From Candidatus Electrothrix aestuarii (GTDB taxonomy: Bacteria > Desulfobacterota > Desulfobulbia > Desulfobulbales > Desulfobulbaceae): DNA of 64,000 nucleotides. The translations under genes were made by a program, and so were the position numbers. Shown in pieces: positions 44,735 through 63,371 of this stretch (positions within the stretch are counted from its first letter, which is position 1; each line of letters starts with the position of its first letter). The notes beneath the pieces are model-generated. The model did no database searches. It saw only the letters and a program-made list of their open reading frames with translations, and was not told the origin of the DNA. Location: positions 3,623,907 through 3,687,906 of the forward strand of contig CP159373.1 in the NCBI GenBank assembly GCA_032595685.2, in the 5' to 3' direction.

Positions 44735-45862
44735 TCATTTAGTGCCGATAGAGGGCGCACGCCAAGTGTACACCGCTGTCACCGCATAATTCCATACCGA
44801 ACTCACCGCTATTCCCGCTAAAGCTGAAAGAATCCAGTTGGTTTTGCGTTGAAATAGCAAGGAGGAAATGCCTACATTGGCGGCTGCTCCGACCCCGCAA
44901 ACCAGGATGAAGGAAAACCAGCCTGTGAGCAGCTTCCACCCCTTGAGCTGAATATCATTATAGGTGAAGAGGTTGTTGAGAAGATAATTAGTGGTCATCG
45001 CCACCAAGGTGGCTATCGCCTGCCCGACAGCAAATGGTCCACCGGTCACACGGAAGAGCAGCAGTAGGATCAGAAAATGGACCAGCACGCCTATTCCTCC
45101 CACCAGTGCAAAGGCAACAAAACGAACTGGAAGTAGATGACCTATCCATTTGTCCAAAAGCAGCATCCCGAATTCAAGTAAGGCTCGATTATCAAGTTTG
45201 CTTTCTCCAGCATGGCGTTCTTTAAAGGTATAGGGTAGTTCCAGAAAACGCATAGGTGTTGGGGAGGAGGCAAAGAGATCCAGCAGGATTTTAAAACCCA
45301 TGCCTGATAATCTACGCACCCGTTGCATCAGGGCTTCCCGGCGAATCATAAAAAAGCCACTCATAGGGTCACTGAGTTCAGTCCGGGTGAAGTAGCGACT
45401 GATCCGGGTGGCAAAACGGCTATAGGCGGCCCTCTTTGCATCCCATGCTCCGATGCCGCCGCCTTGTATGTAGCGGCTGCCTACCACGATGTCCAGTTGC
45501 TGGCTACGTAAAGCTGTGAGCATATCAGGAAGCAACGTTTCATCGTGCTGAAGGTCAGCATCTATAACAGCAAGATAAGGTGCTGAAGAGGAAAGCATGC
45601 CCTCCACACAGGCTGAAGAAAGTCCACGCCGTCCGATGCGGTGGATCAGGCGAACCCTCGGGTCCTGAAAAGCCATGTCAGCCACACGTTGGCTTGTTTT
45701 ATCTGGAGAATCGTCATCGACAAAGATGACTTCCCAAGAGATGTCCTGTAATGCCTCTGCAAGACGATGGGTCAGCTCTTCGACATTATCAGCTTCATTA
45801 TAACAGGGGACAATGACCGAGAGTAGCGGCGCTACGGTGGAGACGGAATCTTTGTTGCTCAT
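44735..45862 (-). CDS. GT2 glycosyltransferase fused to GtrA-like membrane domain (polyprenol-phosphate sugar synthase type)
   Basis: A 375-residue protein. Residues about 15-235 are a family 2 glycosyltransferase of the dolichol-phosphate mannosyltransferase type (VIVPCYNEADNVEEL, VIFVDDDSPDKT, VIDADLQHDETLLP, DPMSGFFMIRREAL). Residues about 240-375 are a GtrA-like domain with four membrane helices (FVAFALVGGIGVLVHFLILL, NYLLNNLFTYND, WNYAVTAVYTW). Such proteins load a sugar on undecaprenyl phosphate for transfer outside the membrane. The start at ATG 45862 follows GAGGGG; an in-frame GTG at 45874 adds four residues. It reads towards the small membrane protein gene. Confidence 0.9.
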   Translation of the reverse strand: MSNKDSVSTVAPLLSVIVPCYNEADNVEELTHRLAEALQDISWEVIFVDDDSPDKTSQRVADMAFQDPRVRLIHRIGRRGLSSACVEGMLSSSAPYLAVIDADLQHDETLLPDMLTALRSQQLDIVVGSRYIQGGGIGAWDAKRAAYSRFATRISRYFTRTELSDPMSGFFMIRREALMQRVRRLSGMGFKILLDLFASSPTPMRFLELPYTFKERHAGESKLDNRALLEFGMLLLDKWIGHLLPVRFVAFALVGGIGVLVHFLILLLLFRVTGGPFAVGQAIATLVAMTTNYLLNNLFTYNDIQLKGWKLLTGWFSFILVCGVGAAANVGISSLLFQRKTNWILSALAGIAVSSVWNYAVTAVYTWRAPSIGTK

Positions 45863-45920
45863 AAACAGATCCACCCCTCAGAAGGGGCAGTTTTCTACAG
45901 CGAAATAGATAAAAAATATC

Positions 45921-46089: not shown

Positions 46090-46764
46090 TTAAAGAGCTT
46101 GTTCCTGATTTTTAAACCAGGCATGCCAGCTGGTTTGCATGGCCCTCGAACGTCTCATATTACAGCCTTGGGTGGGACACTGTTTTCCCGGATATTGGCA
46201 AGGAGGAGGCTGGCGGAAGCAGTCGCCTTGGGGGCATTGGGCCTGGCAATGATGACCAACTCCTGGGTGATAATGAACTCCACAGAATTGACAACGCACT
46301 TCACCGCAGTAATGCTGCATACCCTGGGGGTGGAACACTCCACATGATTTGCATTGCACCATGCCGCAGCGATGCTCGACATCTCTGGGGTGTACATGGC
46401 CGCATTTTTTGCACTGCACCAAGTGGCAGTAATGCTCTACGCCTTGAGGATATCGAGATCCACAGAGTTGACATTGCACAGTGGTTGTCTGTTTTGTTTT
46501 GACGGTGCATGTTGTTTGACATTGGTAGGAGTGCTGATGGACCACCTTTTTCTTGCATGATCTTTTGTGGATAGCGCAACGATCACATTGGCCGCACCGT
46601 GTCGGGCAGGGGGGATGTTGCCTGCACTGTATTGCTTGGCATTGGGGGCAGGAACGAGAAGGCGGAGGAGGAGGCGGGGTTCTCTCGTAGCAATCATACG
46701 AGAAAGCCGTGCTCGCTGTTAATAACAAGGTGATAAGAAAAGTGAACGTTACAATTGATTTCAT
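46090..46764 (-). CDS. Secreted Cys/His-rich protein with four 20-residue CxxC...HxC repeats
   Basis: A 224-residue exported protein with 28 cysteines. Residues 1-22 are a signal peptide (MKSIVTFTFLITLLLTASTA). A Pro run and a Cys-rich N-region (CPQC, CGQCDRC) precede four tandem repeats starting at residues 96, 116, 136 and 156, each V[QR]CxxCG...HxC. Cys fall exactly at 98/118/138/158, 101/121/141/161 and 113/133/153/173, and His at 111/131/151/171. The C-tail has further CPQGDC and CPTQGC units. Four metal centres (zinc, nickel or iron) or a disulfide ladder are both possible. GGGAGGAAG lies just before the ATG. I recognise no family; the CX2CX9HXC spacing is not that of the classical zinc knuckle. 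Confidence 0.8.
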   Translation of the reverse strand: MKSIVTFTFLITLLLTASTAFSYDCYERTPPPPPPSRSCPQCQAIQCRQHPPCPTRCGQCDRCAIHKRSCKKKVVHQHSYQCQTTCTVKTKQTTTVQCQLCGSRYPQGVEHYCHLVQCKKCGHVHPRDVEHRCGMVQCKSCGVFHPQGMQHYCGEVRCQFCGVHYHPGVGHHCQAQCPQGDCFRQPPPCQYPGKQCPTQGCNMRRSRAMQTSWHAWFKNQEQAL

Positions 46765-46996
46765 ACTTCCTCCCGTGTTGAGTATGAATGAATAAAATGT
46801 CTCCAAAAGGAGAGGTGCCTTAAATTTCCAGTGGAACAATAAAAAAGAGAGATTGGAGTACAGATAAGCATTGCGCTCTTTTCTGCCCCGTAAGGCGAAG
46901 GAAAAGAGCAGAGATACGATTTTCACGGTTTGCAGGAGCAATTATTACCATGCTTTTTTTGAATATGCTATGGTAACACCAAGGTTTGATAACTTT

Positions 46997-49438
46997 TTAT
47001 GCCTTGATGGAATAAAATTTATCTATCATACGTTTATGGTTCAGGGCTACACTGCAATCACGAAGCAATAAACCTGTCATTTCTTTTTCCGGGATAGGTG
47101 GGCTGAAGAGAAAACCCTGTCCTTCATGACACTTGTTTTTTTGGAGAAAGAAAAGATGCTCCTCGGTTTCTATTCCCTCGGCAATCACTTTGAAGCGGAG
47201 GTTTTGGGCAATAGCTATGATACCCAGGGTGATGGCTGCATCGGTATTATTCGTGGTCACATTAGTGATGAAAGATCGATCTATTTTGATCTTGTCGACT
47301 TGCAGATGCTGTAAATAACTCAATGATGAGTAGCCGGTCCCGAAATCGTCAATAGCCAGCTTTATTCCTTCGGCCCGGAGTTTATTGATGAGCTCAACAG
47401 TGAAATCTATATTTTCAATGAGCACGCCTTCGGTGAATTCAACTTCCAGAGCATTTGGAGGAAAACCCGTGCTTTCTATACAGCTCATAATTTGATAGAA
47501 GAGATCACGTCGCCGGAGCAGTCGCCCTGAAATATTCACTGCCATGACAAATTTACGGAAGCCCATATCCCGCCATTTTTTCCCCTGCAAGCAGGCCTGA
47601 CGGACAAGATCAATGCCCAGTTTTTCGATCAAGCCGGTACTCTCGGCAATGGGGATAAAGGCAGCCGGTGAAATCAGTCCTTTAACTGGGTGAATCCAGC
47701 GGGCTAAGGCCTCCATTCCACAGATAGAGCCGTCAACCAAATTAATCTGCGGCTGGTAAAAATTAATCAGAGCGTCATCTGCCACAGCCTGACGGAGGTC
47801 ATTTTCCAGGTACAGACTTTGCGCAGCCTGAATTTTCATGCCGCTATTCCAGGAGCAGATTCTGTTGCCGCCCTCACTCTTGGCCGCTTCCATTGCCGTG
47901 TCCGCATTGCGCAGTACATCCAGTGGGGTTTCCCCGTCATCTGGAAACATGCTGTAGCCTATACTGGGCCTGATAAGGATTGCACGAGACTCGTTATTCA
48001 CCGGGGTGCGAAAGCGTTGCATGATCTTCTGAGCCAGTTTATGAGCAAGCTCCTTATCTGAAGGGGGAGGGAGAATAAGAGCAAACTCATCGCCGCTGAG
48101 CCTGGCCACCAAGTCTGCTCCAGATTCCTGACCGCATTGCTGAAGAATGGTTGAGACGCTACAGAGTATCTTGTCCCCAAAACCTGGGCCGAAGATTTGG
48201 TTAATCCGTTTAAAATGATCAAGATCTACATAAACCAAGCCTATCCTGGAATCGTCCTCTTGGGCAGCGTGGATTGAGTCTTCAAGGTATTGCTGAAAAG
48301 AGGGCCTGTCGACTAACCCAGTTAATGCATCATGGGTAAGTTCTGTGGAGAGATGATTGCCCGAGCTGGAGCTGTTTTGATCTCCCCATTTGAGAGGAGA
48401 AGATGCTGTCAAAGAATCTTCAAGGTGCAGGAGGCAGATGAAACCTTTTTCCTGCCCCTCTTCCTGGCCATCTGAATATTTAAAGGAGATTACGGAAGGT
48501 TTTTCTTCAGAGGATTCAGCTTCTTTTTCTCCCTGCCAGTTCCCTTGTCGGATTGCATCCTTGAGAAAGGCTCTGCCTTCCCATTTTTGATGATGCACAG
48601 ACTGTTTCATGGCCTCTTTGAGAGTGCAGTCTGTACCACCCAAGCGGATAACTTGGTCGATTCTTTTGGACTGTATAGCCTTTAAGCTATATCCTGTTCG
48701 TTTGAGAAAGACCGGGTTCGCGTAGACAATGCGTTGCTCAAGATTAATAAAGAGAATTCCGCAGTCCTGATTGTCCATGACCTGACGGCGGATGGACAAT
48801 TCTTTCTGTAATCTGTATGAGGTGGTTTTTGCTTGGTGAAGCTGGGTTTTGTATTCAGATAATTGTTGATGCAGGATTTCATAATTTTCATCCTGACCTT
48901 GTTGTTTTTTCTCTTGTTGAGGACTTGCCTTTGCATGTTTTTTGCTGTGTTTCGGGGGTTCTTCTTTTTTTACAGCTGGTTCGATTTGGTGCTCATAGGA
49001 AATGTTGATCGTTCCCCAACTCATCAGTTGTTCTTCACAGTAAATGAGTCCGGTCCCATTAAATCCGGGCTGGAGAATACTTTCTGTGCCCAAGGCCTGC
49101 ACGATCACGGTAAAACTATCGGCAGCTGTTTTTTTTACTTGTATAAGATGAGCGTAGTCCTGGAATGGTTCGAGCGTAAGCTCTGGAGTTTGAATGTCAT
49201 TGACCTTGAAGATCAACTGGAACTGCTGTTCGGTGTGTTCCGTTTCCGGGCCAAGACGCAGTATTCTTGGCTCCCAAGTAATGCCGGGGTTACTGCCAGT
49301 ACTCTGCCGATCCTGGTCAAGAAAAGGGAACGGGCTATGAAACCCGCAGAACTGACAGGTGAAGTTGTTGTTTTCGATCAGGGACGGGGTCAGAGTGATA
49401 CTGTTTCTCTGACCGCATTCTTCACAAAAGAGAATCAT
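46997..49438 (-). CDS. Zinc-ribbon PAS-GGDEF-EAL protein (c-di-GMP signalling)
   Basis: An 813-residue soluble protein. It begins with a short zinc ribbon (CEECGQRNSITL...CQFCGFH, residues 5-32), then a beta-rich region, a charged coiled coil, a PAS domain (CGILFINLEQRIVYANPVFL), a diguanylate cyclase domain with SGDEF in place of GGDEF (LVARLSGDEFALIL), and an EAL phosphodiesterase domain with complete motifs (GMEALARW, EFTEGVLIE, AIDDFGTGYSSLSYL, VIAEGIETEE). I infer c-di-GMP hydrolysis, with the cyclase half possibly still active or acting as a GTP sensor. The T4P/PilY1 cluster elsewhere in the window is a possible target system. Confidence 0.92.
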   Translation of the reverse strand: MILFCEECGQRNSITLTPSLIENNNFTCQFCGFHSPFPFLDQDRQSTGSNPGITWEPRILRLGPETEHTEQQFQLIFKVNDIQTPELTLEPFQDYAHLIQVKKTAADSFTVIVQALGTESILQPGFNGTGLIYCEEQLMSWGTINISYEHQIEPAVKKEEPPKHSKKHAKASPQQEKKQQGQDENYEILHQQLSEYKTQLHQAKTTSYRLQKELSIRRQVMDNQDCGILFINLEQRIVYANPVFLKRTGYSLKAIQSKRIDQVIRLGGTDCTLKEAMKQSVHHQKWEGRAFLKDAIRQGNWQGEKEAESSEEKPSVISFKYSDGQEEGQEKGFICLLHLEDSLTASSPLKWGDQNSSSSGNHLSTELTHDALTGLVDRPSFQQYLEDSIHAAQEDDSRIGLVYVDLDHFKRINQIFGPGFGDKILCSVSTILQQCGQESGADLVARLSGDEFALILPPPSDKELAHKLAQKIMQRFRTPVNNESRAILIRPSIGYSMFPDDGETPLDVLRNADTAMEAAKSEGGNRICSWNSGMKIQAAQSLYLENDLRQAVADDALINFYQPQINLVDGSICGMEALARWIHPVKGLISPAAFIPIAESTGLIEKLGIDLVRQACLQGKKWRDMGFRKFVMAVNISGRLLRRRDLFYQIMSCIESTGFPPNALEVEFTEGVLIENIDFTVELINKLRAEGIKLAIDDFGTGYSSLSYLQHLQVDKIKIDRSFITNVTTNNTDAAITLGIIAIAQNLRFKVIAEGIETEEHLFFLQKNKCHEGQGFLFSPPIPEKEMTGLLLRDCSVALNHKRMIDKFYSIKA

Positions 49439-49535: not shown

Positions 49536-50105
49536 TTATGTTGGCTCAACATAGCTGTTCAAAACACGGTACAGCATGTCCGGCAGATCATTTTTGTTGC
49601 GCGAGCTACGCTGGATTTGCTTAAGACATTTTTCCAGGGTTAATTTTTCGCCCAAGAAGATATGGCGAAGAATTAATGAAATTAAACGTGTTATCGTTGT
49701 GAGGTTGGATATGCGTGACTGCAATTCATGGTCACGATCAAATGCTGTTGATGCAAAGACCTCTATAGGCTGTCCGTCAACCTCACTAACTGAGAGGTAC
49801 CATTTGTTTTGGTCTCTATCAATGGTTCGGTAGCGTTTGCCATCCAAGACCTCTGGAAGCTCAGGATCTTTTTCCTTTTTGTCGGTGGATCTGTTCTGTT
49901 GACTGGTGTTTCCTTGGATATATGGTGCAATTTTGTCGATAATCGAAGGGTGTTTTTTCAGGATCTCCACAAGTGTGCAGCAGGAGGAGCATACCTGAAA
50001 TCCAGCCTCGCGGACTGTTTGTTCTTCTGTCCCGCATAATTGACAACACGGGGACGATGTTTTTCCCACCTCCACATTGCCTCCTTTGAAACTGACTCTG
50101 TTCAT
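49536..50105 (-). CDS. Small zinc-ribbon protein with TSCPD-like domain (NrdZ C-terminus-like)
   Basis: A 189-residue protein. The N-terminal part has paired cysteines (CCQLCGTEE and VCSSCC), probably a zinc ribbon. The C-terminal 95 residues (KWYLSVSEVDGQPIEVFAST, then TTITRLISLILR) resemble the TSCPD-type domain that ends B12-dependent ribonucleotide reductases (pattern YVTVNE..G.PFEVF...). Here it lacks the reductase body and the TSC-P-D motif. Role unknown; nucleotide or ribonucleotide-reductase regulation is a guess from the fold only. The start at ATG 50105 is preferred over an in-frame TTG at 50129. It is divergent from the methyltransferase gene. Confidence 0.6.
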   Translation of the reverse strand: MNRVSFKGGNVEVGKTSSPCCQLCGTEEQTVREAGFQVCSSCCTLVEILKKHPSIIDKIAPYIQGNTSQQNRSTDKKEKDPELPEVLDGKRYRTIDRDQNKWYLSVSEVDGQPIEVFASTAFDRDHELQSRISNLTTITRLISLILRHIFLGEKLTLEKCLKQIQRSSRNKNDLPDMLYRVLNSYVEPT

Positions 50106-50306
50106 GATATTTCTTATATCAGAGTACAACGTGTTAACAAAAAGAACAACTGTAGTTCTGTAAAACCTTAGATAATACCCGAAAAATATCTCAGGTAAAC
50201 ATGAAGAAATAATGTTTTACCTTAAACGGCCACGTGAGTTGAAAAATGGTCGTTATCTGTTATTGATTACTCGGTTCCTCAAAAGAAGACCGGAGGAGAT
50301 TGTAAA

Positions 50307-51846: not shown

Positions 51847-53535
51847 TCAGGTCACCCGGAAAACCTCTTCCAGGGTGGTGACACCTTCCAGCACCTTGCG
51901 CAGGCCATCCATGCGTAGGGTCAGCATAGGATTCTCCGCATCATGTATCGCCTCCCGTTTGATCTGTCCGGCATCGGAAGTGGTGAGCATGATGCTCTTG
52001 ATATGCTCAGACAGGACCATGAGTTCATAAATGCCGTGGCGGCCTTGATAACCGGTATTCAGGCATTCCTCACAGCCTTGACCACGGTAGAGTTCCGCAT
52101 CGTGAAATTCCGGGGGCAGGGCCAGCTGTTCAAGGTATTCAGGGGCAGGTCGGTAGGCTTCACGACAATGCGGGCATATTTTACGGACAAGGCGCTGGGC
52201 CATGATGGCGTTGACCGAGGAGGAAACCAGGAAGGGTTCAACCCCCATGTCAATGAGGCGGGTCACGGCACTGGCTGCATCATTAGTATGCAGGGTGGAG
52301 AATACAAGATGCCCGGTCAGGGCAGCCTGAATAGCCATCTCCGCAGTTTCTATATCCCGGATCTCACCCACTAGAATGATGTCTGGATCCTGACGGACAA
52401 TGGTGCGCAGACCATTGGCAAAGGTCAGATCTATTTTGGCATTGACTTGCACTTGACTGATCCCATTTATCTGATATTCGATAGGATCTTCCACTGTAAT
52501 GATATTTACATCAGGCTGATTCAGCACGGTCAGGGCGGAATAAAGGCTAGTTGTTTTTCCACTCCCTGTGGGACCTGTGACCAGGATAATGCCATGCGGT
52601 GCCTTGATCAGTTTGAGCAGCAGATTGAGGTCCCGGGGAGACATACCCAGTTGCTCCAAGGAAAGCAGGACGTTGGATTTATCCAGCAGACGCATAACCA
52701 CCCGCTCACCAAAGGCCGTGGGCAGTGAGGAGACACGGAGATCAATATTTTTGTCTGCAATGCGGATCTCAATACGACCGTCCTGGGGAAGGCGTTTCTC
52801 TGCAATGTCCATCTTGGCCATAATCTTGATCCTGGAGATCAGCTTAGCCTGCACATGCTTTTGCGGGGTGAGCATGTCGTAGAGGATGCCGTCAACACGC
52901 TTGCGGATTTTCACCCTGTCCTTGTACGGTTCAATATGGATATCACTGGCACCATCACGGACAGCCTGGGATAAAATCAGGTTGACTAGCTTGATAACCG
53001 GTGCATCGCTGGTGTCATCCAGGAGGTCCGTGGTCTCCTCAATCTCGGAAAGGAGTGCCTCTGGATCGTCCTCATCAATATCCTGAAGAACCTGATCTGC
53101 TGCTCCTTGGCTAGTGCGGTCATAGGCAACGTTCACGGCAGCGAGGATTTCATCTTCCGGGACAAGAACCGTATGCATGCCCTCCCATTGCAGAATCCGC
53201 TGGAGATCATCCAGTTGCTGAAAATGCATGGGGTTGCCGAGAGCGATGAAGGATTCATCAGGGGTTGCTACAGGCATCATCCTGAATTTTTTCAGGAAGC
53301 CTATAGAGACCTTATTGGTGAAGAAGGGATCAGGAAAGAGGGGAAGCTCCATACGAACTTCCAGATCCCATTGTTCGCCAATAGCGAGTAAGAGATCCGT
53401 TTCCGAGATCCTACTCTGCTGAAGAAGGATTTCCCCCAGGGGCTTTCCTTTCTCCAACTGGAGGGCAACGGCTTCCTCGACTTCTTCCTCAGAAAGACCA
53501 AAGGAGTCAACCAGTATATGTCCAAGAGGTTTCAT
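51847..53535 (-). CDS. gspE: Type II secretion ATPase GspE
   Basis: The cytoplasmic motor of the T2SS, 562 residues. The N1/MshEN-like domain is at residues 1-150, followed by the ATPase core with Walker A GPTGSGKTTSLYSAL, Asp box ITVEDPIEYQ, Walker B IILVGEIRDIETAE and the His box GHLVFSTLHTND. The zinc site is CPHC...CEEC. It is the last gene of the T2SS operon, 13 bases after gspD. No gspF follows, unlike the usual E-F order. The N-terminal extension looks like the MshEN c-di-GMP-binding type (LGEILLQQSRISETDLLLAI), so c-di-GMP control is possible but not shown. Confidence 0.95.
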   Translation of the reverse strand: MKPLGHILVDSFGLSEEEVEEAVALQLEKGKPLGEILLQQSRISETDLLLAIGEQWDLEVRMELPLFPDPFFTNKVSIGFLKKFRMMPVATPDESFIALGNPMHFQQLDDLQRILQWEGMHTVLVPEDEILAAVNVAYDRTSQGAADQVLQDIDEDDPEALLSEIEETTDLLDDTSDAPVIKLVNLILSQAVRDGASDIHIEPYKDRVKIRKRVDGILYDMLTPQKHVQAKLISRIKIMAKMDIAEKRLPQDGRIEIRIADKNIDLRVSSLPTAFGERVVMRLLDKSNVLLSLEQLGMSPRDLNLLLKLIKAPHGIILVTGPTGSGKTTSLYSALTVLNQPDVNIITVEDPIEYQINGISQVQVNAKIDLTFANGLRTIVRQDPDIILVGEIRDIETAEMAIQAALTGHLVFSTLHTNDAASAVTRLIDMGVEPFLVSSSVNAIMAQRLVRKICPHCREAYRPAPEYLEQLALPPEFHDAELYRGQGCEECLNTGYQGRHGIYELMVLSEHIKSIMLTTSDAGQIKREAIHDAENPMLTLRMDGLRKVLEGVTTLEEVFRVT

Positions 53536-53548
53536 AGGGACATACCTT

Positions 53549-55816
53549 TTATTTGGACTCTTTTTGATGAATTTTTCTCAGATTCTCCTTGGCTGTATTG
53601 AGCAAGGCCTGGTCCTCGGGGCTGTGAGTTGTTTCGGTAGAATCTCCACGACTATCCGAAAGATCAAGGACCTGTCGATAGACTTCTTCTGCTTTTTTCC
53701 ATTGTTTTTCATGCTCGTAAATAAGGCCCATGTTGATTAAGGCATAGGAGTTTTCTGGCTGAATCTTCAGAGCCTGCTGGAAGTAGCCCTTTGCCTCCTG
53801 ATATTGTTTGTGCTGGAGTTTGGCAAAACCCAGATCAATAAAGGCGTAGACATTTTCCTGGTTCGGTTTGAGCTGAAGGATTTTTTCTGGAACCTCACCA
53901 GATCCTTCCTGGACATCCTCCATCACATCCCGCTTTCGTTGGTAGATATTGGCAAGCTCTGGAGAACTTTCCACAATGCGGGGCATGATAAAGATAAACA
54001 TGTTTGTTTTATTATCCAGGTCTTCATGTGTCCTGAAAAGCCAGCCCAACAAGGGAATATCACCCAGCAAAGGTACCTTGTAATCTCCCGAGGTGATATC
54101 CTGTCCTATCATGCCACCGATAACCACTATCTCCTCGTTATGCACAACAACGGTAGTTTCAGCAGAACGTTTATAGGTGGTGGGCGTGGTTACACCCGCT
54201 TCACTTTTTAGGCGGGTAACTTCAACACCGATTTCAAGACGGAGCAGATTAGCCTGATTAATCTGCGGAGTAATTTTCAGCGTGGTACCGACGTCCTTAT
54301 ACTCATAATTGGTATAATCCTGAGTACTGCCGCTATCTGAGGTGTTTTTACTGGTAATGTAAGGAACATTCTGACCAACCGTAATACTGGCTTCCTTATT
54401 ATCCGTGGTTAATACTTGTGGTGTGGCAATGATGTTAATATCTGAGTCTGTCTTCAAGGCATTTACAACCGCTCCGATATCAGGGAAATAGACCCCTCCG
54501 ATTTCTACACCTTTTTTGAGGATTCCCAGGGTAGCTCCATCAGCCATACCAGCAACGCCCGAGTTAAGTCCCTGCAAGAGATTGAAACTATTATTGGTAA
54601 ACCCTGAACCTAAGGTGCCGGTTTCGTCCTGGAAACTCCCGAGTCCTCCCCATTCAACACCCAATTGGAATTGTTTATTAATAGAGACCTCCATGATCAG
54701 GGCCTCCAGGTAGACCATGCGGCGGGGAATATCAAGCTTTTTGATAATTTGTTCAAGAATCAGATACTCTTCCTTGGGTGCCGTGATAATGAGAGAATTT
54801 GTCTCTGGATCAGCAGTAATTTTCAGGTCTGTAGACAGGGGAGGGGCTTTGGCAGCTGCTTCCTTGGTATTCTGCTTGCGTGTCGTGTTTGTTTGCTTTG
54901 TGGGTAAGCTGGTGAGCACCTTAACCAGTTCTTCAGCATTCGCATGCTGAAGGTAATAGACATGAATCTTTCCTCCGCCTTGGGGGGCCTCGGTGTCCAA
55001 TTCTTCTAACAGGTTCCGTAATTTCTCTATTTGAGCCTTTGGAGCAAAGACAATGAGCGAATTGGTACGCTCATAGGGAATGATTTTAATATTTGAGGAG
55101 CTACCGCTACTCCCTCTGCTCCTTCTTCGTGTTGATTGGACAAAGAGCTGGCTAAAGGATTTGCCCACATCCGTGACAGAGGCGTATTGCAAAGGAATAA
55201 TAACCAGTTCTTCATCTACAGAGGGAACGTCAATCTCCTTGAGGATCTCCATCAGGCGTTTAATATTGGACTGCACATCGGTCAGAATCATCATCCCGGA
55301 TTGGGAGTGGGCAATGACATTGCTGGTTTTAGAGAGCAGGGGCTTAAGTACTTTTGTTAGCTCATCCGGGTCAGAGTACTTCATCGGGATGATCCGGGTC
55401 ACCACCTTGTCTTCAGCAACAGGCTTATCTCCTGATTTGACCGTAGGAATGCTCTTTGATCTGGCCTCAACAGCAGGAACAATCTTTATGACAGGTCCGC
55501 TGGGAATTGTAGAAAAACCATGTACTTCCAGAACAGACTCAAAAACCCGGTAGGCATCTTCCTTGCTCATCCGGGTTGGAGAGATGACAGTAATCTTTCC
55601 CTTAACCGAGCTATCTACGATAAAGTTTTTACCCGTTAACTCGCTTATGTATTTTATAAAAACACTGATATCAACATCGTTGAAGTCAATAGTTACATAT
55701 TCTTGATCGTCCGTATCATGCTGCTGAGGAGTCTCTGCAAAGCAGCTCAGAGAGGTGACAAGGAGCAGCGTCAGGGTAAGGCAAAGTATACGTAAGGGTG
55801 ATAAAGAAATGTTCAT
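53549..55816 (-). CDS. gspD: Type II secretion secretin GspD with C-terminal TPR extension
   Basis: The outer-membrane channel of the T2SS, 755 residues. A signal peptide is followed by N0 (VTIDFNDVDISVFIKYISEL), N1-N3 domains with a Ser/Arg-rich loop (RRRSRGSSGSSSN), and the secretin barrel (EALIMEVSINKQFQLGVEWG, TPQVLTTDNKEASITVGQNV, VPLLGDIPLLGWLFR). After the barrel, where a short pilotin-binding S domain is usual, there are about 100 residues with two TPR units (AFIDLGFAKLQHKQYQEAKG and ALINMGLIYEHEKQWKKAEE). The start at ATG 55816 follows CAGGA; the frame is open to 55867. Neighbours are gspC upstream and gspE downstream. Confidence 0.94.
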   Translation of the reverse strand: MNISLSPLRILCLTLTLLLVTSLSCFAETPQQHDTDDQEYVTIDFNDVDISVFIKYISELTGKNFIVDSSVKGKITVISPTRMSKEDAYRVFESVLEVHGFSTIPSGPVIKIVPAVEARSKSIPTVKSGDKPVAEDKVVTRIIPMKYSDPDELTKVLKPLLSKTSNVIAHSQSGMMILTDVQSNIKRLMEILKEIDVPSVDEELVIIPLQYASVTDVGKSFSQLFVQSTRRRSRGSSGSSSNIKIIPYERTNSLIVFAPKAQIEKLRNLLEELDTEAPQGGGKIHVYYLQHANAEELVKVLTSLPTKQTNTTRKQNTKEAAAKAPPLSTDLKITADPETNSLIITAPKEEYLILEQIIKKLDIPRRMVYLEALIMEVSINKQFQLGVEWGGLGSFQDETGTLGSGFTNNSFNLLQGLNSGVAGMADGATLGILKKGVEIGGVYFPDIGAVVNALKTDSDINIIATPQVLTTDNKEASITVGQNVPYITSKNTSDSGSTQDYTNYEYKDVGTTLKITPQINQANLLRLEIGVEVTRLKSEAGVTTPTTYKRSAETTVVVHNEEIVVIGGMIGQDITSGDYKVPLLGDIPLLGWLFRTHEDLDNKTNMFIFIMPRIVESSPELANIYQRKRDVMEDVQEGSGEVPEKILQLKPNQENVYAFIDLGFAKLQHKQYQEAKGYFQQALKIQPENSYALINMGLIYEHEKQWKKAEEVYRQVLDLSDSRGDSTETTHSPEDQALLNTAKENLRKIHQKESK

Positions 55817-55879
55817 AATATCCTGCAATACAAAATTAATTGGCCTTATTAAAAAAACGGGATGCATCGTGCCTATCCA

Positions 55880-56833
55880 TTAATTCTCTTCCTCAAGAGA
55901 TGGCAGATCATCTTCGGGTAAGAGTTCATCTTCTTCATCCACTACATCATCAAGCTGGGTGTCATCGTTTGTATCTCTTGCATTCCGTAGCGGATTTCTC
56001 CTAATATTTATCCTGCGAGGGGTACGAATAGAAGGGGGCCTTCGATTCGTGCGTACCTGCTGCTCCTCCCGTGAGTCAATGCGGCGTGGCGTAGGAGAGC
56101 TGGTCCGGACAGGTGGACTGGGTAGACGTGGGCCACCGCCTTTTCGTTTTTCCATGAGAAGGGTTTCCCGTGCCCCGAAGACCTCAAGGATAACCTTACC
56201 CCGTTCAATGGACTCGATGATGGCCCCTTGCACTGCATCACCGATCCGGTAGAGCTTTTGCTCGGTTTGTTTGTCCTCGATAATAATGGCGCGGGCTACC
56301 TGATCATCGCCCATTATAGTCCCCTGAAGGGTCAGGTTTAACGAGGTTTGAGGCGCTTCCTCTACAGCTGCGACTGGTTGCACCTCCTTAGGTAGCTGCT
56401 GTGTTGCTGTTTCAGGTTGCTCTGTCTGCACAAGCTGAAAAATATTACGACGAACAATGACCTGAAAGTCAGGATGCTCATAATCAACCGGTTGTTCAGC
56501 AGAGGGTAATGCTGGTGCCGCACCTTCAGGGGCAGGGGCATCTACCGGTTCCTGAGGCTCTGCTGTTCCCTGAGGAACAGGAGGAACAGGAGGGTCAGGT
56601 TGCTGCGGTGCTGGCGCTTGCTCTTTCTCCAGAGCTAGTTCCTGCTGAGCCGGAGGATTTGTTACATCCTTTCCGGCAGGAGCGTTCTGTTTTGCAGGCT
56701 GAGCAACTGGAAACTCGGCAATACCGCAACAGCTGCCAGTGAGGAGTTCCTTTTCCAGTCTGGCATAGACCAAGTGAACAGCAGCATAGGCCAGGACAAA
56801 GATAGCAGCGAGTTTAATCAGGACTCGGATCAT
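55880..56833 (-). CDS. gspC: Type II secretion inner-membrane protein GspC
   Basis: A 317-residue protein. One N-terminal membrane helix (LIKLAAIFVLAYAAVHLVYA) is followed by a long Pro/Ala/Gln-rich spacer (about 45-115) and the homology region (NLTLQGTIMGDDQVARAIII and KLYRIGDAVQGAIIESIERG), the part that contacts GspD. The C-terminus is Arg/Pro-rich and then very acidic; no PDZ domain is visible, as in many deltaproteobacterial GspC. The start overlaps the gspN stop by four bases. gspD follows 63 bases downstream. Confidence 0.85.
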   Translation of the reverse strand: MIRVLIKLAAIFVLAYAAVHLVYARLEKELLTGSCCGIAEFPVAQPAKQNAPAGKDVTNPPAQQELALEKEQAPAPQQPDPPVPPVPQGTAEPQEPVDAPAPEGAAPALPSAEQPVDYEHPDFQVIVRRNIFQLVQTEQPETATQQLPKEVQPVAAVEEAPQTSLNLTLQGTIMGDDQVARAIIIEDKQTEQKLYRIGDAVQGAIIESIERGKVILEVFGARETLLMEKRKGGGPRLPSPPVRTSSPTPRRIDSREEQQVRTNRRPPSIRTPRRINIRRNPLRNARDTNDDTQLDDVVDEEDELLPEDDLPSLEEEN

Positions 56834-57792
56834 CGTGCCGGGCCCCCTTTGGGCTGCTGTTGGCGCTGTTTTTTTAACAATTCCATCTGCCTGTTAAATC
56901 CAGGTGGAAGGCTGGTAAAGAGTATATTCGGCTTTTTCAGCGGACCATTCACTGTTAAAGGAAGAGGTCCCTTTTGCATCTCTTTATTGAGCAGGGCAGC
57001 AAGGGAGGGGCTACCGAGCGAAGCTGTAAAGTCCGGTCCGGGCTGAAAAGAGCCTGTTACGCGAATATTTGAATCACTGCAAGGAACTGCCATGCGCAGA
57101 TTTCCTTTAAAGTTAGCAGCAAATAGAGGAGATGTTACCTTGCCCTGGCTGAAGACAATAGTCCCGGTGTTCATGTTCAATTGGGTTTCAAGGCGATCAA
57201 AGTCTATTTGGTCCATACCCAGAACAGCCTGCTGGAGACTGATTGATCCTTGGGCAAAGACGAATTTTCCTTGCATGGTATGCGTTATATCGGTCAAATT
57301 CCGTTTGCCGGAAAATTTTCCAGACAAGATACCATGCACATCGCGCTGATATTCCTCTTGGAACAAGGGGAGTTCCTTATTGTTTATGGCAAGATCCTGT
57401 ATCACTCCGTTGTATTGCAGCGCCTTGCGATTTTTTGTCAGGGCCAGACGACCGAGCACTGTCCCTTTGAGGAGGTGAGCGGTGTATTGTGCTGTTACCT
57501 TACCTGTTTTTTTCCAGGTCATAAGGTCTGGGCCTAAGGTGAGGTCCTGGAGAGTGAATATTTTCTTTTGTTCTCTCCTGCCTGTCACCTGAATATTTTG
57601 CAGCTGAACACGCAATGGGGGGAGCAAGGTGAGTCTTTCCACAACCCATTGTAAACCGGGATTTGTCCTGTTCAGATCCTTTTCGATCCTGGTTTTTACG
57701 GCATCAGCTGGAAATTTATACCAGAGCAAAGCAAGCACGACCACCACGGTGTAGATGAGATAGCCGGAAAATTTGAGCAGCTTCATCAACAT
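56830..57792 (-). CDS. gspN: Type II secretion protein GspN
   Basis: A 320-residue inner-membrane-anchored protein (YLIYTVVVVLALLWYKFPAD near the N-terminus) with the AsmA-like periplasmic beta-rich body of the deltaproteobacterial GspN. Motifs include FPADAVKTRIEKDL, LLPPLRVQLQNI and GSFQPGPDFTAS. GspN is optional in T2SS and its role is not settled. It starts 3 bases after the gspM stop and overlaps gspC by four bases. Confidence 0.8.
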   Translation of the reverse strand: MLMKLLKFSGYLIYTVVVVLALLWYKFPADAVKTRIEKDLNRTNPGLQWVVERLTLLPPLRVQLQNIQVTGRREQKKIFTLQDLTLGPDLMTWKKTGKVTAQYTAHLLKGTVLGRLALTKNRKALQYNGVIQDLAINNKELPLFQEEYQRDVHGILSGKFSGKRNLTDITHTMQGKFVFAQGSISLQQAVLGMDQIDFDRLETQLNMNTGTIVFSQGKVTSPLFAANFKGNLRMAVPCSDSNIRVTGSFQPGPDFTASLGSPSLAALLNKEMQKGPLPLTVNGPLKKPNILFTSLPPGFNRQMELLKKQRQQQPKGGPAR

Positions 57793-57795
57793 AAT

Positions 57796-58335
57796 CTACT
57801 CGCTGATCACTCCGGTTTGCACCAGACTGATAACCTTCATAATCACATCCAGTGTCCCCAGATCTTTATCGTTCACGTCCACCTGGATGCGTTGCAGGGC
57901 CACGATATGTTCTGAGGATTCAATGCGTTCCAAAAAAGCAACCAGCAGATTAAGGCGGATAGCCTTGAGTTTCATCTCCACCATAATCTGTTGCACTGGC
58001 CCATCCCCTGTGGCATCAGAGGGTTTCATATAAGAGATATTATCCTTTACCTGAACTTCTGCGCATTTTTCCTCAAGAAAGGCAAAAAGACTGAAGTCTG
58101 CTGGTCGCGCTGCAACTAAGGCTTCCAGGCCGGTGCTGCGTTGACTGAGTCGGGTGATTTCATCTTGCATCGCCTGCATCTCAGCCAAACCTTTTTCTTT
58201 GCTGTGTATTTTTCGTTCCAGCTGCTTGCGCTGGGCAAGAAGAGGAAAAAATATAAACTGAATAATGGCAAAAATACCCAGCGCGATCAGCAGAAAGGTC
58301 AATGCCCTTTTATCTTTCTGACTTAACGTGGCCAT
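57796..58335 (-). CDS. gspM: Type II secretion protein GspM
   Basis: A 179-residue bitopic protein: a short cytoplasmic N-terminus, one membrane helix (ALTFLLIALGIFAIIQFIFF), a coiled coil (RKQLERKIHSKEKGLAEMQ) and a ferredoxin-like periplasmic domain. GspM pairs with GspL in the inner-membrane platform. Its ATG overlaps the gspL stop as TAATG. Confidence 0.86.
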   Translation of the reverse strand: MATLSQKDKRALTFLLIALGIFAIIQFIFFPLLAQRKQLERKIHSKEKGLAEMQAMQDEITRLSQRSTGLEALVAARPADFSLFAFLEEKCAEVQVKDNISYMKPSDATGDGPVQQIMVEMKLKAIRLNLLVAFLERIESSEHIVALQRIQVDVNDKDLGTLDVIMKVISLVQTGVISE

Positions 58336-59870
58336 TAGGATTGTTCTCCTTTCGCGCTGGTCAGCTGGAGCTTGATTTCAAAGCGTATGCCTTCTTTCTC
58401 CGTTCCCTTTGTTGCGGAGACAATACTTACTTCTGCATAACGTTCTGATGCGGTGAGCATATTTTTAATCGTGTTCACATTATTAAAGGCATCCGTGGTC
58501 CCGGAAATCTTTACTGAGCCTTGATCAACAATGAGCCGGGTGACATGTATATCCAGAGTGGCTGGAATCCGGGAAGAAATGTCATAGAGGGTGAAAAGAA
58601 CCCGTTTTTTCTCGTTAAAGATAGGCATGGAAACGGAGACTGTGTCCATACCCTGAAGTTTAGAACGCATGTGCAGCAGCGGGTCGCCACTTGGTGTTAT
58701 GCCGGGAAAGCTCTCCTGGAAGACATCCACCATGTCGGTGGACAGCTCATCATACGTGTTTTGCAGATGCCGGGCGTCAAAGAAGAGGTAGCTTAAAGAA
58801 ATCAGAAAAAGAGCTCCCACAGCTATGGCGGCACCAGTCAGCTGTTTTTTCGAGCGCAGAAGATAATGCGGTGGGGCAAACTCGTTTTTGCGGAAATTAA
58901 GGGACGTCGTTTTTTTTCTGAAACTGGCCTGCAAGGCCAAGGCAAGAGGGCGATCAAAAAGCTCCGGCTTCCATTGCCCGGCAATCGTTGCAGACAAGGT
59001 AGCTGTTTCTGCCTGAATAAGATCTGATTTTTTGACAGGCAGCTCCAGTTCAGCTGCTATCTTTTCCTCAAAGCCCTGACCAAGGAGCATGGGACCGGTC
59101 AGGAGTATATAGGCTGGCTGCAAGGAAAGGGAAAATTGGTGTTTAAAAAAATCTACACTTTGTTGAATATCTGCGCAGATCTGATTGACTACCTGTTCAG
59201 CCTTATCAGGATTATCGGTGTGGATTTCCTGGCCGTCAAAGGAGAACAATGCCTCGGTAAACACTTCAGCAGGATAGGCCAGGTGACGCATAAAGACCAC
59301 GGCACCCTGATGGATAACCGTTACTGTGCTTGCCGAGAGATCGCAGGAGAGGAGCAAAAAGTTCTCTGCTTCCTGATCACTTTGGCTGAGTCGTTCCCCG
59401 AGAACGAAATCTGTCGGACTGATATGATCTGGCTCAAGTCCCTGTGCATGAAAGAGGGCAAGGTATTCTAAGAGGGTGTCTTTATCAAGGGCAGCCGTCA
59501 GTAGATGGGTTTCTCCCTCTTCCTTGTCGACGATGGAAGGACTGGTGGCAATGACTTGCTCATCAAAGGGCAGCATGAGCTGCTCATCCAACTCAAAGGG
59601 GAGGATCTGCTCAATCTTTTTGGTATCTGCAAAGGGCAGGATGATATTACGCAGGCTGATTTCAGAGAGTGAGAGGCCGATATCACAAGCCCCTTTTTTC
59701 TCCCATTGTAGCGCGTCTAGCAGGAGAGGGAGTTGTTCGGTAAGGCCGTTTTCTCCATCAAGCCGGAGATAGGCGCAAGACGCCACCTTGGCCTCTTTGC
59801 CTTTTCCGGCTACAGCAACCCCGGTCAGCAGATCATCGCTGATATCTATGCCAAAAGAAAGATGGCCCAT
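58335..59870 (-). CDS. gspL: Type II secretion protein GspL (actin-like, PilM-type)
   Basis: A 511-residue protein. Residues 1-320 form a cytoplasmic actin-like domain (FGIDISDDLLTGVAVAGKG, LPFELDEQL, LLLSCDLSASTVTVIHQG). A membrane helix (LTGAAIAVGALFLISLSYLF, about 340-360) leads to the periplasmic coiled coil and ferredoxin-like domain of PilN/GspL type (RLIVDQGSVKISGTTDAFNN). It links the ATPase GspE to the membrane platform. A 157-bp gap separates it from gspK upstream, unusual in this otherwise tight operon. Confidence 0.9.
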   Translation of the reverse strand: MGHLSFGIDISDDLLTGVAVAGKGKEAKVASCAYLRLDGENGLTEQLPLLLDALQWEKKGACDIGLSLSEISLRNIILPFADTKKIEQILPFELDEQLMLPFDEQVIATSPSIVDKEEGETHLLTAALDKDTLLEYLALFHAQGLEPDHISPTDFVLGERLSQSDQEAENFLLLSCDLSASTVTVIHQGAVVFMRHLAYPAEVFTEALFSFDGQEIHTDNPDKAEQVVNQICADIQQSVDFFKHQFSLSLQPAYILLTGPMLLGQGFEEKIAAELELPVKKSDLIQAETATLSATIAGQWKPELFDRPLALALQASFRKKTTSLNFRKNEFAPPHYLLRSKKQLTGAAIAVGALFLISLSYLFFDARHLQNTYDELSTDMVDVFQESFPGITPSGDPLLHMRSKLQGMDTVSVSMPIFNEKKRVLFTLYDISSRIPATLDIHVTRLIVDQGSVKISGTTDAFNNVNTIKNMLTASERYAEVSIVSATKGTEKEGIRFEIKLQLTSAKGEQS

Positions 59871-60027
59871 TACAGCATGCGGCGTATAAGCAAAGAGGAG
59901 CTTCTCAGGCTACAGGACAGAAATCCAGAGCAAGAGGGCAGAAAGGAGGGGATGGAAACAAACCGCAACGCAGTATACGATCTATTCGATGTATTCGAGA
60001 AGAGGGCAGGTGGTTGTAAGCTGTTAT

Positions 60028-61090
60028 TCATTGTATTTTCCAGTAAAGCAGAACCTGCTCCTGATTTTTTTTGCGCTGGACAATTCCTTCACCGGTTCGT
60101 TTGAGGCCATTTTCTGTCGCGGTGAGAGTAATTTTAAAGAAATTACTTTCTGTTGTAATCAGAATTTGATCAAAGGAGATGGTGCTCGGGAACCCTGGAA
60201 CATTGCGGTACCAGGTGATTTCTTTCAGCGTGTCTTTATTCTCTTCGCTCTCCCTGAAGGAGATCAGGTCAGCGGCAATTTCTTCGGTCATTTCCCCATG
60301 AAGGGCCTGCAGAACCAGTGCAGGAGCCGTATTGATATTGACCTTACCCGGTTGCTCGCCGCAGGTCAAATAGTCAATGAGATTTGAAGAGGCATTCTCT
60401 CGTTTTTTCAGTCCGGTGTAAAGAATTTTCTGGTCCCAACCTTTGACGAGTACCAGATCCTCAATCAGTTGCAGAGGGCCGTTGCTTGGAACATAGGAGG
60501 GACCAAGGCCGCTGTAGTATCCTTTTTCCGCACCGTTTTCTTTTTCTTCATCATCACTGTCCAGCCAATCCACCAGGCTGTCCAGCATAATGTCCACCTG
60601 CTCTTCATCCATTGCTTCAAGCCCAAGGTCCTCGAGACTGAGAAAACGTTTCCAAAGGCTCCGTTGTAGTTTTTCCGGGTCTTTTTTTTTGTTTTTACTC
60701 TTTTGCTTTTTTTTCCATGCTTTTTTCTTTCTCAGTCCAGACCAGGGCATTGGCCTGCAAGCGACCAGAGAGGTCCGTCACCGTAACATCCAGGGTGCCG
60801 GGAAAGAGTTCACTAAGCAATGCGGAATCAAGGGTTCCCCAGGTATCAAGTGGGGTATCGGATGTATTATCTTCCTGTTGCTGGTCTGCCAGCAAAGCGG
60901 CACGGGCAATATGAAGCCCGGACAAGAGCATGGCATCCAGACGAACTGTTGTGCTTTGGTTAGCAGCAGAGATCATTTGGCGATTAACCGAGGTGCTGAG
61001 ACGAACAGTCACCGCAACAAGAAAGCTCACCGCCATAAGGGTCAGGATCAAGGCCATGCCGGAGTCCTTTTGGTGCTGAGACGCAGACAT
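60028..61090 (-). pseudogene. gspK: Type II secretion pseudopilin GspK, frameshifted in an A-rich tract
   Basis: Two overlapping minus-strand frames together make one GspK of about 353 residues. The first (61090 to stop 60695) has the leader MSASQHQKDSG|MALILTLMAV and LSGRLQANALVWT. The second (to 60028) has the GspK saposin-like insertion and GKVNINTAPALVLQAL, ending LTATENGLKRTGEGIVQRKKN. They join in the lysine-coding A-rich stretch: removing one A from A8 (plus-strand T8 at 60707-60714) or from A6 (60721-60726) makes one frame. GspK caps the pseudopilus with GspI and GspJ. It starts on the gspJ stop (TAATG). Sequencing error, mutation and slippage all remain possible. Confidence 0.83.
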
Positions 61091-61791
61091 TAGCTGTCTT
61101 CCTCTGGTTGGGCCTGGATCAGGCCTGTTGGCAGGAGAACCGTTGTTTGGAACACGATAGTTCGTTCCGCTTCTATATCAACCCAGAATTCCAAACGGCA
61201 GGTCACGGCAGCAGGCAGACGGCGCTTGGCCTTTGCCTCTTCATCATCCTCATCCACGGTGGTGTCCCAGCTTTCCTGTTCCTCGCCTTGGTAATCATAA
61301 AAAGTGAAATCAACCGACCGGAGCTGATCTGCGAGTATATAGGCCTCGACCTCGCCGCTTTCTTCCCCGTCTTCTGTGGGACGCTGAAGGGCATCGCTCC
61401 GCACAAGGAGAAGATGACCGCTCTGATCAGGATCAGCCTGCAGGGCATAGTGAATCCTTCCCAGGCCTGGTTGATCATTTTTCGGGTCAAGGACCAGATG
61501 GGCCAGGGAGGAAAAGGAGAGCAGGACAGTTTGTTCACTGCTGTCGCTGCCGGATTGACCTATGAATTCCATGTCATTGGTGAGCAGGGCCGAACTCAGG
61601 TCTTCGTTGATTCGTTCCATTGCCACCTGGGCCCGATAATAAAGATCCCCCTGGGTTATGGTGGCATCAATGGCGTTGATGGACCCGGACAGAGCGGTTG
61701 TCACCATTGCCACAACCAGACCGAGAATCAGCACGGCCAGCATGATTTCCAGCAGGGTGAAACCTGCTTGTTCAGAATCGGGTGAAGTCAT
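61090..61791 (-). CDS. gspJ: Type II secretion pseudopilin GspJ
   Basis: A 233-residue minor pseudopilin: leader MTSPDSEQAG, cleavage G|FTLLE with Glu +5, hydrophobic helix LEIMLAVLILGLVVAMVTTA, then the GspJ/PulJ-type globular domain (AMERINEDLSSALL, RSVDFTFYDYQG). It forms part of the tip complex I-J-K. The start overlaps gspI by four bases (ATGA) and the stop overlaps the gspK start. Confidence 0.9.
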   Translation of the reverse strand: MTSPDSEQAGFTLLEIMLAVLILGLVVAMVTTALSGSINAIDATITQGDLYYRAQVAMERINEDLSSALLTNDMEFIGQSGSDSSEQTVLLSFSSLAHLVLDPKNDQPGLGRIHYALQADPDQSGHLLLVRSDALQRPTEDGEESGEVEAYILADQLRSVDFTFYDYQGEEQESWDTTVDEDDEEAKAKRRLPAAVTCRLEFWVDIEAERTIVFQTTVLLPTGLIQAQPEEDS

Positions 61792-62216
61792 TCTGTCTCA
61801 GCAGGTTCAATCTCGGTCATGATCACCGAGCGAACCGTGAAGGCCTGGTTGGGATCATCCCCGCGACTGATTTTCAAGGTAAGAAGTTTGAGCATGCCGT
61901 CGCTGTCTGGTATATCGGTCTCAGCTTCACCTAACTCCCTTACTTCGCTCTGCCAGGCATAATCGGAAAAATCATCTTCAAATTGGCCGGACCCGTCCGT
62001 AAGCTCAGAATATCCTGCTAATTGCAGCTCGCTGAGTTTTTCCCGGGCCAGCATGGCCGCCGTTGTTTCAAAACGGGAGATGTCAGCTATGGAGATGCTC
62101 TGTGATTGGGAGCCCAGCAGAGAGACAAAGGACATGGCAATGATGGCCACCGCAACCATGACTTCCAGGAGGGTGAAACCGGCATCTGTTTTTTGGGAAG
62201 GCGTAAGGGAGCGCAT
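61788..62216 (-). CDS. gspI: Type II secretion pseudopilin GspI
   Basis: A 142-residue minor pseudopilin: leader MRSLTPSQKTDAG, cleavage G|FTLLE (Glu +5), helix EVMVAVAIIAMSFVSLLG, then MLAREKLSELQLAG, which is typical of GspI. It nucleates the pseudopilus tip with GspJ and GspK. gspH lies 27 bases upstream. Confidence 0.91.
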   Translation of the reverse strand: MRSLTPSQKTDAGFTLLEVMVAVAIIAMSFVSLLGSQSQSISIADISRFETTAAMLAREKLSELQLAGYSELTDGSGQFEDDFSDYAWQSEVRELGEAETDIPDSDGMLKLLTLKISRGDDPNQAFTVRSVIMTEIEPAETE

Positions 62217-62243
62217 GTTATGTTGTCTGCTTATCTCAAGAAA

Positions 62244-62819
62244 CTACCTGTTCAGTGTGATCTGGTCTTGCTCAAGCGAGACATGCCCTTCCAGAATTCG
62301 GGCCACACCGAGAAAGGGAGAGAGCATGACCGTCACCTGATCCCCGGTATCACTCTCAAAATGAATGGCCGCCTTTCTGGTATAGCCCTTGGTTGTAAAA
62401 CGGATGCCCGTGTCATCGCTGTCTGTGGGGGAGTCCTCGTTCTTGGTTTCTATGCCTGTCAAGGTGACAGAATCATCCAGCTTGGCCCGGAGGTAGGCTT
62501 TCTCTGCCTCTTCTTCAGCTGTCTCCGGTCCTGTGCTGACAGGGATGGCGAGAAAGGCCTTTGTTTCGCGGTCAAAGCGCAGGATAAAGGCAATATGTTT
62601 TGCCCGGGCCTCCTGGCCTGCTTCGGTGACCAGCCCCACAAAGCGCTGCGCTGTGGCACTGAGCTCATTGCTATACAGGCTGGATTGAATTTTGGGCATG
62701 GTAAAGGCGGCTGTGATGGAGATCAGCACCATGACAACAACCAGCTCAATCAGTGTGAAGCCCTGTTGGTCGGTACCGGTGCGCTCTCTTAGGAATGTAA
62801 CAAGACAAATCTTATCCAT
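62244..62819 (-). CDS. gspH: Type II secretion pseudopilin GspH
   Basis: A 191-residue minor pseudopilin: leader MDKICLVTFLRERTGTDQQG (longer than usual), cleavage G|FTLIE, helix ELVVVMVLISITAAFTMPKI, and a GspH-type beta-rich domain (AKHIAFILRFDRETKAFLAI). A palindromic dispersed repeat fills most of the gap to gspG (62832-62894). The downstream neighbour is gspI. Confidence 0.88.
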   Translation of the reverse strand: MDKICLVTFLRERTGTDQQGFTLIELVVVMVLISITAAFTMPKIQSSLYSNELSATAQRFVGLVTEAGQEARAKHIAFILRFDRETKAFLAIPVSTGPETAEEEAEKAYLRAKLDDSVTLTGIETKNEDSPTDSDDTGIRFTTKGYTRKAAIHFESDTGDQVTVMLSPFLGVARILEGHVSLEQDQITLNR

Positions 62820-62831
62820 TATTCCTGATCC

Positions 62832-62894
62832 TGTAGGGGCGCTCCCCTGTGTTCGCCCTTGTCCGCCGGGCAGGCACAGGGGCCTCCCTCTACA
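62832..62894. repeat. Palindromic dispersed repeat between gspG and gspH
   Basis: A 63-bp imperfect palindrome with ends TGTAGGGGCG and CCTCCCTCTACA and an inner TCCCCTGTG / CACAGGGG pairing, about 19 paired bases in total. It fills nearly the whole 81-bp gap inside the operon. A degenerate relative lies at 546-630. Confidence 0.72.
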
Positions 62895-62900
62895 AATACC

Positions 62901-63371
62901 TTACATCTCCCAGCTATTGATGTCCGCATCCATACCCTCACCGCCGGGTTCGTTATCCGGGCCATAGGACATGAGATCGAAGTCACCGTGTGTTCCTGGG
63001 CTGATGTAGATGAAGTCATTATCCCAAGGATCTTTGGGCACATTTGCTTTATCCAGATAGCCGCCTTCACGCCATTTTTTGGCCAGTTGGCCAGTGGAGG
63101 GCGGTTCCACCAGGGCCTGTAAGCCCTGATCCGTGGTTGGGTATTTGCCGTTATCCAGCTTGTAGAGTTTCAGGGCCTGACTCAAGGCGCTGATATCGAC
63201 TCCGGCCTTGGTGCGTCGGGCCTCTTCAGGCCGATCCATGATCTTGGGCACGATCATACCGGCAAGAATACCAAGGATAACAATAACCACCATGAGCTCA
63301 ATCAGGGTAAAGCCGCGTTCATCCCGTTGAGTTGCTTTATTTGCTTTCTGCTTTCTGCTGACGTTCTTCAA
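62901..63371 (-). CDS. gspG: Major type II secretion pseudopilin GspG
   Basis: The main subunit of the pseudopilus, 156 residues: leader [20 protein letters not shown], cleavage G|FTLIE (Glu +5), helix [20 protein letters not shown], then [40 protein letters not shown] and the C-terminal calcium-site loop ([20 protein letters not shown]). It is the first gene of the operon. It precedes gspH by 81 bp that hold a palindromic repeat. Confidence 0.95.

What the first reader, a model, noticed from the sequence alone, without database searches (positions are those of the whole stretch)
46090..46764. Secreted 28-cysteine protein with four exact 20-residue CxxC-HxC repeats
The repeats at residues 96-175 keep Cys, Cys, His and Cys in perfect register (98/101/111/113 and every 20). 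The spacing CX2CX9HXC is not that of any zinc finger I can name, and the protein is exported. Four bound metals or a surface metal-storage or structural role are possible. In a cable-bacterium relative, exported metal-binding proteins would be of special interest, but that link is inference.
Basis: partly seen in the sequence, partly recalled or inferred. Interest (0 to 1): 0.75.

Follow-up and report, generated by a model that had tools for sequence, protein, structure and literature searches.

The report
Exported cysteine-rich putative metal-knuckle array
Marine cable bacteria (Ca. Electrothrix) carry a small exported protein, found in no other genome searched, that contains three or four evenly spaced cysteine-histidine units which probably each hold one metal ion, most likely zinc; its job in the cell envelope is unknown.

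Summary
The ORF at 46090-46764 (minus strand, 224 aa) has a Sec-type signal peptide, 28 Cys, and four CX2CGX8HXC units at an exact 20-residue period; none of 100,000 shuffles gave even three. It is a real, selected gene: single-copy orthologues lie in the same place (between a GGDEF-EAL gene and a GT2-GtrA gene) in 7 of 8 held genomes of its genus, which named records identify as Candidatus Electrothrix. So the host is a cable bacterium, not a relative of one. I found no homologue in 66 other genomes of the family, 394 others sampled from the phylum, or Pfam, NCBIfam, PHROGs, phages and plasmids. The unit count is 3 or 4; in one species (Ca. E. gigas) only unit 1 stays intact, and units that lost a Cys of the CXXC also lost the His. 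The unit histidines are far better conserved than other histidines (14/16 versus 17/50). AlphaFold gives the array confidently (pLDDT 83) as one beta-hairpin per unit. Best reading: an exported array of CXXC+HXC metal knuckles, most likely structural zinc, flanked by Cys-rich, probably disulfide-bonded tails. Metal identity, export destination and function are untested. A conductive-fibre role is not supported.

The parts
46090..46764 (-). Gene for the 224-aa exported Cys-rich protein (28 Cys, 16 His)
   Evidence: orthologues; dN/dS about 0.3
46765..46774 (-). Shine-Dalgarno region GGGAGGAAGT before the ATG
   Evidence: GGAGGAAGT-ATG identical in all seven orthologues
46699..46764 (-). Signal peptide, residues 1-22 (by eye; cleavage before Y23)
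   Evidence: pattern inspection only
46480..46698 (-). Cys-rich N-terminal part of the mature protein, residues 23-95 (11 Cys), low-confidence model
46420..46479 (-). Unit 1, residues 96-115; Cys98 Cys101 His111 Cys113, invariant in all seven orthologues
46360..46419 (-). Unit 2, residues 116-135; Cys118 Cys121 His131 Cys133
46300..46359 (-). Unit 3, residues 136-155; Cys138 Cys141 His151 Cys153
46240..46299 (-). Unit 4, residues 156-175; Cys158 Cys161 His171 Cys173; absent in three species
46093..46239 (-). C-terminal part, residues 176-224 (5 Cys) ending in a conserved W-x-x-W helix (WHAWFKNQ)
46997..49438 (-). Conserved upstream neighbour: PAS-GGDEF-EAL protein (c-di-GMP turnover)
44735..45874 (-). 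Conserved downstream neighbour: family 2 glycosyltransferase with GtrA/DPMS membrane domain

Best explanation
It is a genus-specific envelope protein of Ca. Electrothrix. Sec exports it (inferred from the signal peptide). Each 20-residue unit folds as a beta-hairpin whose CXXCG turn and following HXC pair bind one metal ion within the unit, most likely structural Zn(II), so that three or four units form a short stiff array; the Cys-rich ends are probably closed by disulfides made by the VKOR-DsbA pathway that this genome encodes. The array would serve as a metal-stabilised structural or binding module in the periplasm or outer envelope. Shown: sequence, spacing, orthology, selection, selective conservation of the His, predicted hairpins. 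Inferred: metal binding, zinc, disulfides in the tails, structural role.
For: Three Cys and one His per unit in fixed register. Unit His conserved 14/16 against 17/50 for other His, Fisher p = 0.0003 (related sequences, so indicative only). In L007 (Ca. E. gigas) units 2-4 each lost a CXXC Cys and also the His, while unit 1 keeps all four ligands although the CXXC of unit 2 is broken: this favours sites inside a unit. Species have whole numbers of units, 3 or 4. Each unit is more alike between species (0.47-0.65 outside the motif) than to its neighbours in the same protein (0.27), so each is kept separately. AlphaFold of the array: mean pLDDT 83, unit 1 about 94, one hairpin per unit. The best but non-significant fold and profile matches are nearly all zinc-bound domains. 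dN/dS 0.30-0.34 between three species. VKOR-DsbA-like fusion present, DsbB not detected.
Against: No direct evidence of metal. Thiol metal sites are uncommon in an oxidising periplasm, and a disulfide-forming enzyme is present. Foldseek gave nothing at E <= 0.001 and VIA-align nothing at Z >= 2 for the array; zinc-domain matches can come from Cys/His composition alone. One species has lost three of the sites, so they are not all essential. Model coordinates could not be measured for ligand geometry.
Confidence: 0.5

Rival explanations
1. A disulfide-cross-linked envelope protein: the 28 Cys pair within and between molecules, giving a tough, protease- and detergent-resistant layer; the His are incidental.
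For: Exported, Cys conserved 88%, VKOR-DsbA-like disulfide pathway in the genome. Published fibre sheaths are rich in sulfur and resist SDS/EDTA, and disulfides were proposed there (PMC8238962).
Against: Odd number of Cys per unit; selective conservation of the unit His and its loss together with CXXC Cys; hairpin CXXCG turns are typical of metal knuckles (general knowledge). One orthologue has 25 Cys, an odd number.
Confidence: 0.27
2. A metal buffer or storage protein (zinc, nickel or copper) in the periplasm, working like a metallothionein.
For: High Cys and His content, up to four sites plus Cys-rich tails. Nickel is delivered to the periplasm in cable bacteria (PMC11247825).
Against: Rigidly spaced hairpin units and one-species loss of three sites do not look like a capacity-driven store; no metal transporter gene recognised next to it; His content falls from 16 to 1 between orthologues.
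Confidence: 0.13
3. A component or chaperone of the nickel-based conductive fibres.
For: Exported Cys-rich protein conserved across Ca. Electrothrix; fibres contain sulfur-ligated nickel and their protein is unidentified (PMC8238962, PMC11976967).
Against: Found in none of 13 other genera of the family; fibres and the nickel cofactor are shared with Ca. Electronema according to the literature. Ca. E. gigas has one intact unit. I could not name which held genus is Electronema, so this is not decisive.
Confidence: 0.05

Closest known systems
Zinc ribbon / rubredoxin-type knuckles (e.g. Pfam Zn_ribbon_LapB, Rubredoxin)
   Same: CXXCG turn closing a beta-hairpin; sub-threshold profile matches
   Different: Those use two CXXC knuckles; here the second half-site is HXC, the unit is 20 residues, units are tandem, and the protein is exported
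C2HC zinc fingers (Pfam zf-C2HC_2)
   Same: Two Cys, one His, one Cys in that order; weak match E 2.3-8.6
   Different: No match near the cut-off; His-Cys separated by one residue instead of the wider gap of that family (spacing from general knowledge)
TMEM55B tandem RING-like domains (8oqh, 9qm9)
   Same: Best Foldseek match of the array, E 0.009, a tandem zinc-bound module
   Different: TM-score 0.20, no VIA-align match at Z >= 2, eukaryotic and cytosolic; not evidence of kinship
Metallothioneins
   Same: High Cys content, likely metal thiolate chemistry
   Different: Exported, longer, fixed CXXC/HXC spacing, no family match

Membership tests
Pfam zf-C2HC_2 (PF13913) | Score above the curated cut-off (27 bits) | tested here: not met
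   8.5 bits, E 2.3 for the array; E 8.6 at best for full proteins
Zinc ribbon / rubredoxin families | Two CXXC knuckles as the four ligands of one metal | tested here: not met
   The conserved second pair is HXC, not CXXC, in every intact unit; no Pfam ribbon reaches its cut-off
Zinc ribbon / rubredoxin families | Fold shared with solved ribbons | tested here: inconclusive
   Foldseek E >= 0.009, VIA-align no Z >= 2
Metallothioneins | Match to a metallothionein family model | tested here: not met
   No Pfam or NCBIfam match
Multihaem c-type cytochromes | CXXCH haem-binding motifs | tested here: not met
   No CXXCH in any of the seven orthologues
Cable-bacterium conductive-fibre proteins | Present in both Ca. 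Electrothrix and Ca. Electronema | tested here: inconclusive
   Only in genus g1 of 14 genera searched, but the Electronema genomes could not be named among the held genera
Cable-bacterium conductive-fibre proteins | Found in isolated fibres, sulfur-ligated nickel | not testable with these tools
   Needs proteomics and metal analysis

The most novel reading that the evidence does not exclude
A new, genus-restricted type of exported tandem metal knuckle (CX2CGX8HXC, 20-residue period) that builds a metal-stabilised part of the Ca. Electrothrix envelope, possibly the insulating sheath or nickel handling around the conductive fibres.
Probability: 0.08. Interest if true: 0.8.

Novelty: new variant of a known kind. 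Interest (0 to 1): 0.42.

Why it matters
The proteins that build the cable-bacterium envelope and its wires are mostly unidentified. An exported, selected, Electrothrix-only Cys/His repeat protein, with natural variants carrying 4, 3 or 1 intact units, is a concrete candidate to look for in existing filament proteomes and a handy test case for whether thiol metal sites are used outside the cytoplasm of these organisms.

Tried and rejected
No family match in Pfam, NCBIfam or PHROGs. No relatives in viral contigs, plasmids or phages. First genome-contig scan with the single sequence found nothing; the alignment found the three named records. TRIM5/TRIM34 profile hits (best E 0.0008 for the full profile, 0.006 for the array) judged Cys-driven: alignments match the RING Cys spacing poorly and miss the His. 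A two-unit DNA pattern in 395 genomes gave three hits in the gene itself and one hit each in six unrelated genomes, against three for the reversed control; the first of the six (L048) has an in-frame stop, the others were not examined. No Rfam match in the window at gathering scores. 16S identities could not single out Electronema (g12 92.3-92.7%, g10 90.9%). Sites shared between neighbouring units (HXC of one, CXXC of the next) were considered and are disfavoured by the Ca. E. gigas pattern.

Full report
What is there. The minus-strand ORF 46764..46090 encodes 224 residues with 28 Cys and 16 His. It starts at an ATG behind GGGAGGAAGT, and GGAGGAAGT-ATG is identical in all seven orthologues. 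A longer TTG-started reading (283 aa) has no such support. Residues 1-22 look like a Sec signal peptide without a lipobox (inspection only). CX2CGX8HXC occurs at 98, 118, 138 and 158. None of 100,000 shuffles gave three or more such motifs. The spacing is exact; the sequences are not (7-11 of 20 residues identical).

Where it comes from. The window lies in a single 5.1-Mb contig. Relatives were found only in the same genus. Named records among them are Candidatus Electrothrix aarhusensis and Ca. Electrothrix gigas, plus an unnamed Desulfobulbaceae MAG. The host is therefore a cable bacterium of the mainly marine genus Ca. Electrothrix. Of eight genus members, seven carry one copy; the eighth genome is 69% complete. 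No copy was found in 66 genomes of 13 other genera of the family, in 37 sampled genomes of the same order or in 394 others drawn from the phylum. Plasmids, phages and viral contigs gave nothing. 'None found' applies to what is held and to this sensitivity.

Context. In all seven genomes the gene sits, in the same direction, after a PAS-GGDEF-EAL gene and before a GT2-GtrA glycosyltransferase gene, with gaps of 88-268 and 71-218 bases. The GGDEF-EAL gene has orthologues of 62-70% identity in genus g10; in the two of them read (L038, L039) the next gene is RsmE-like on the other strand, with no Cys-rich gene in the 1.5 kb shown; in g14 methionine sulfoxide reductase genes occupy that place. The Cys-rich gene is thus most simply a local addition of the Electrothrix lineage. 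Whether the three genes are one operon is not known.

Selection and units. dN/dS is 0.30-0.34 among L003, L004 and L005 and 0.04 (few changes) between the window genome and its nearest relative, so the frame is coding and constrained. Cys is 88% conserved and Trp 100%. The unit His are conserved in 14 of 16 comparisons, the other His in 17 of 50 (the sequences are related, so the p-value is indicative). The orthologues fall into three types: four units (window genome, G007, L006), three units (L003, L004, L005), and one intact unit (L007, Ca. E. gigas). In L007 unit 2 lost Cys121 and His131, unit 3 lost Cys138 and His151, unit 4 lost Cys158 and His171, while unit 1 is complete. Joint loss of Cys and His is what metal sites predict and disulfides do not. 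Because unit 1 stays complete beside a broken CXXC in unit 2, ligands are more likely drawn from one unit than shared between neighbours. Corresponding units are more alike between species than units within one protein, so the array is older than these species.

Structure. With seven sequences the full protein is modelled poorly outside the array (mean pLDDT 54; array about 60-86). The array alone gives mean pLDDT 83, about 94 for unit 1, with one beta-hairpin per unit. Foldseek finds no significant relative; its weak matches are mostly zinc-bound domains (TMEM55B, Cep104 zinc-finger array, LysW, RBR ligases). VIA-align found no match at Z 2 or more for the array. Such weak matches may reflect composition. 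I had no coordinates with which to measure the sites.

Mechanism. The most likely reading is an exported chain of small metal knuckles, one ion per unit held by CXXC and HXC, most likely zinc as structural metal (C3H sites with CXXCG turns; general knowledge), with Cys-rich tails that may be disulfide-bonded. The genome has a VKOR-DsbA-like fusion and no DsbB match, so disulfide formation outside the cytoplasm is possible and remains the main rival. A metallothionein-like store is less likely because His content varies from 16 to 1 and whole units are lost.

Link to electricity. Published work describes sulfur-ligated nickel in the fibres, proposes abundant disulfides there, and has not identified the fibre protein (PMC8238962, PMC11976967). 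That work looked for candidates shared by both cable genera. This protein was seen only in Ca. Electrothrix, so it is not a good fibre candidate, but I could not tell which held genus is Ca. Electronema. Among the cable-bacterium papers I searched none was seen to describe this protein; supplementary tables could not be read.

Verdict. A correct and well-observed feature; a real, lineage-specific exported gene with probable metal sites of an unlisted spacing; function unproven.

Noticed in passing
window 51847-63371 (-): A run of type II secretion-like genes (GspE-, GspD-, GspC-, GspL/M/N-, GspK/J/H/G-like by sequence) lies about 5 kb from the gene on the same strand; it could export folded periplasmic proteins, possibly this one.
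   Followed up: no
window 46997-49438 (-), N-terminus: The neighbouring GGDEF-EAL protein starts with two CXXC pairs (CEECG...CQFCG), a likely zinc ribbon, as does the next gene (49536-50129, TSCPD domain, CQLCG...CSSC); short words such as CQFCG and CQLCG recur in the Cys-rich units. Probably coincidence.
   Followed up: no
window 46800-46813 (-): Short hairpin TCTCCTTTTGGAGA followed by a T-rich stretch, 35 bases before the start codon; not conserved in the other Electrothrix species aligned, except the nearest one.
   Followed up: partly
L076 778-1938 (-): VKOR fused to a DsbA-like thioredoxin domain in the window's genome, while DsbB is not detected: the likely disulfide-forming enzyme of this cable bacterium.
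   Followed up: partly
L007 1489-2193 (-): The Ca. Electrothrix gigas orthologue keeps the same frame, ends and gene position but has lost three of four units' ligand sets and nearly all His (1 left).
   Followed up: yes
window 10351-16944 (+): 2197-aa protein downstream of several pilin-like genes, PilY1-like by its position and sequence.
   Followed up: no
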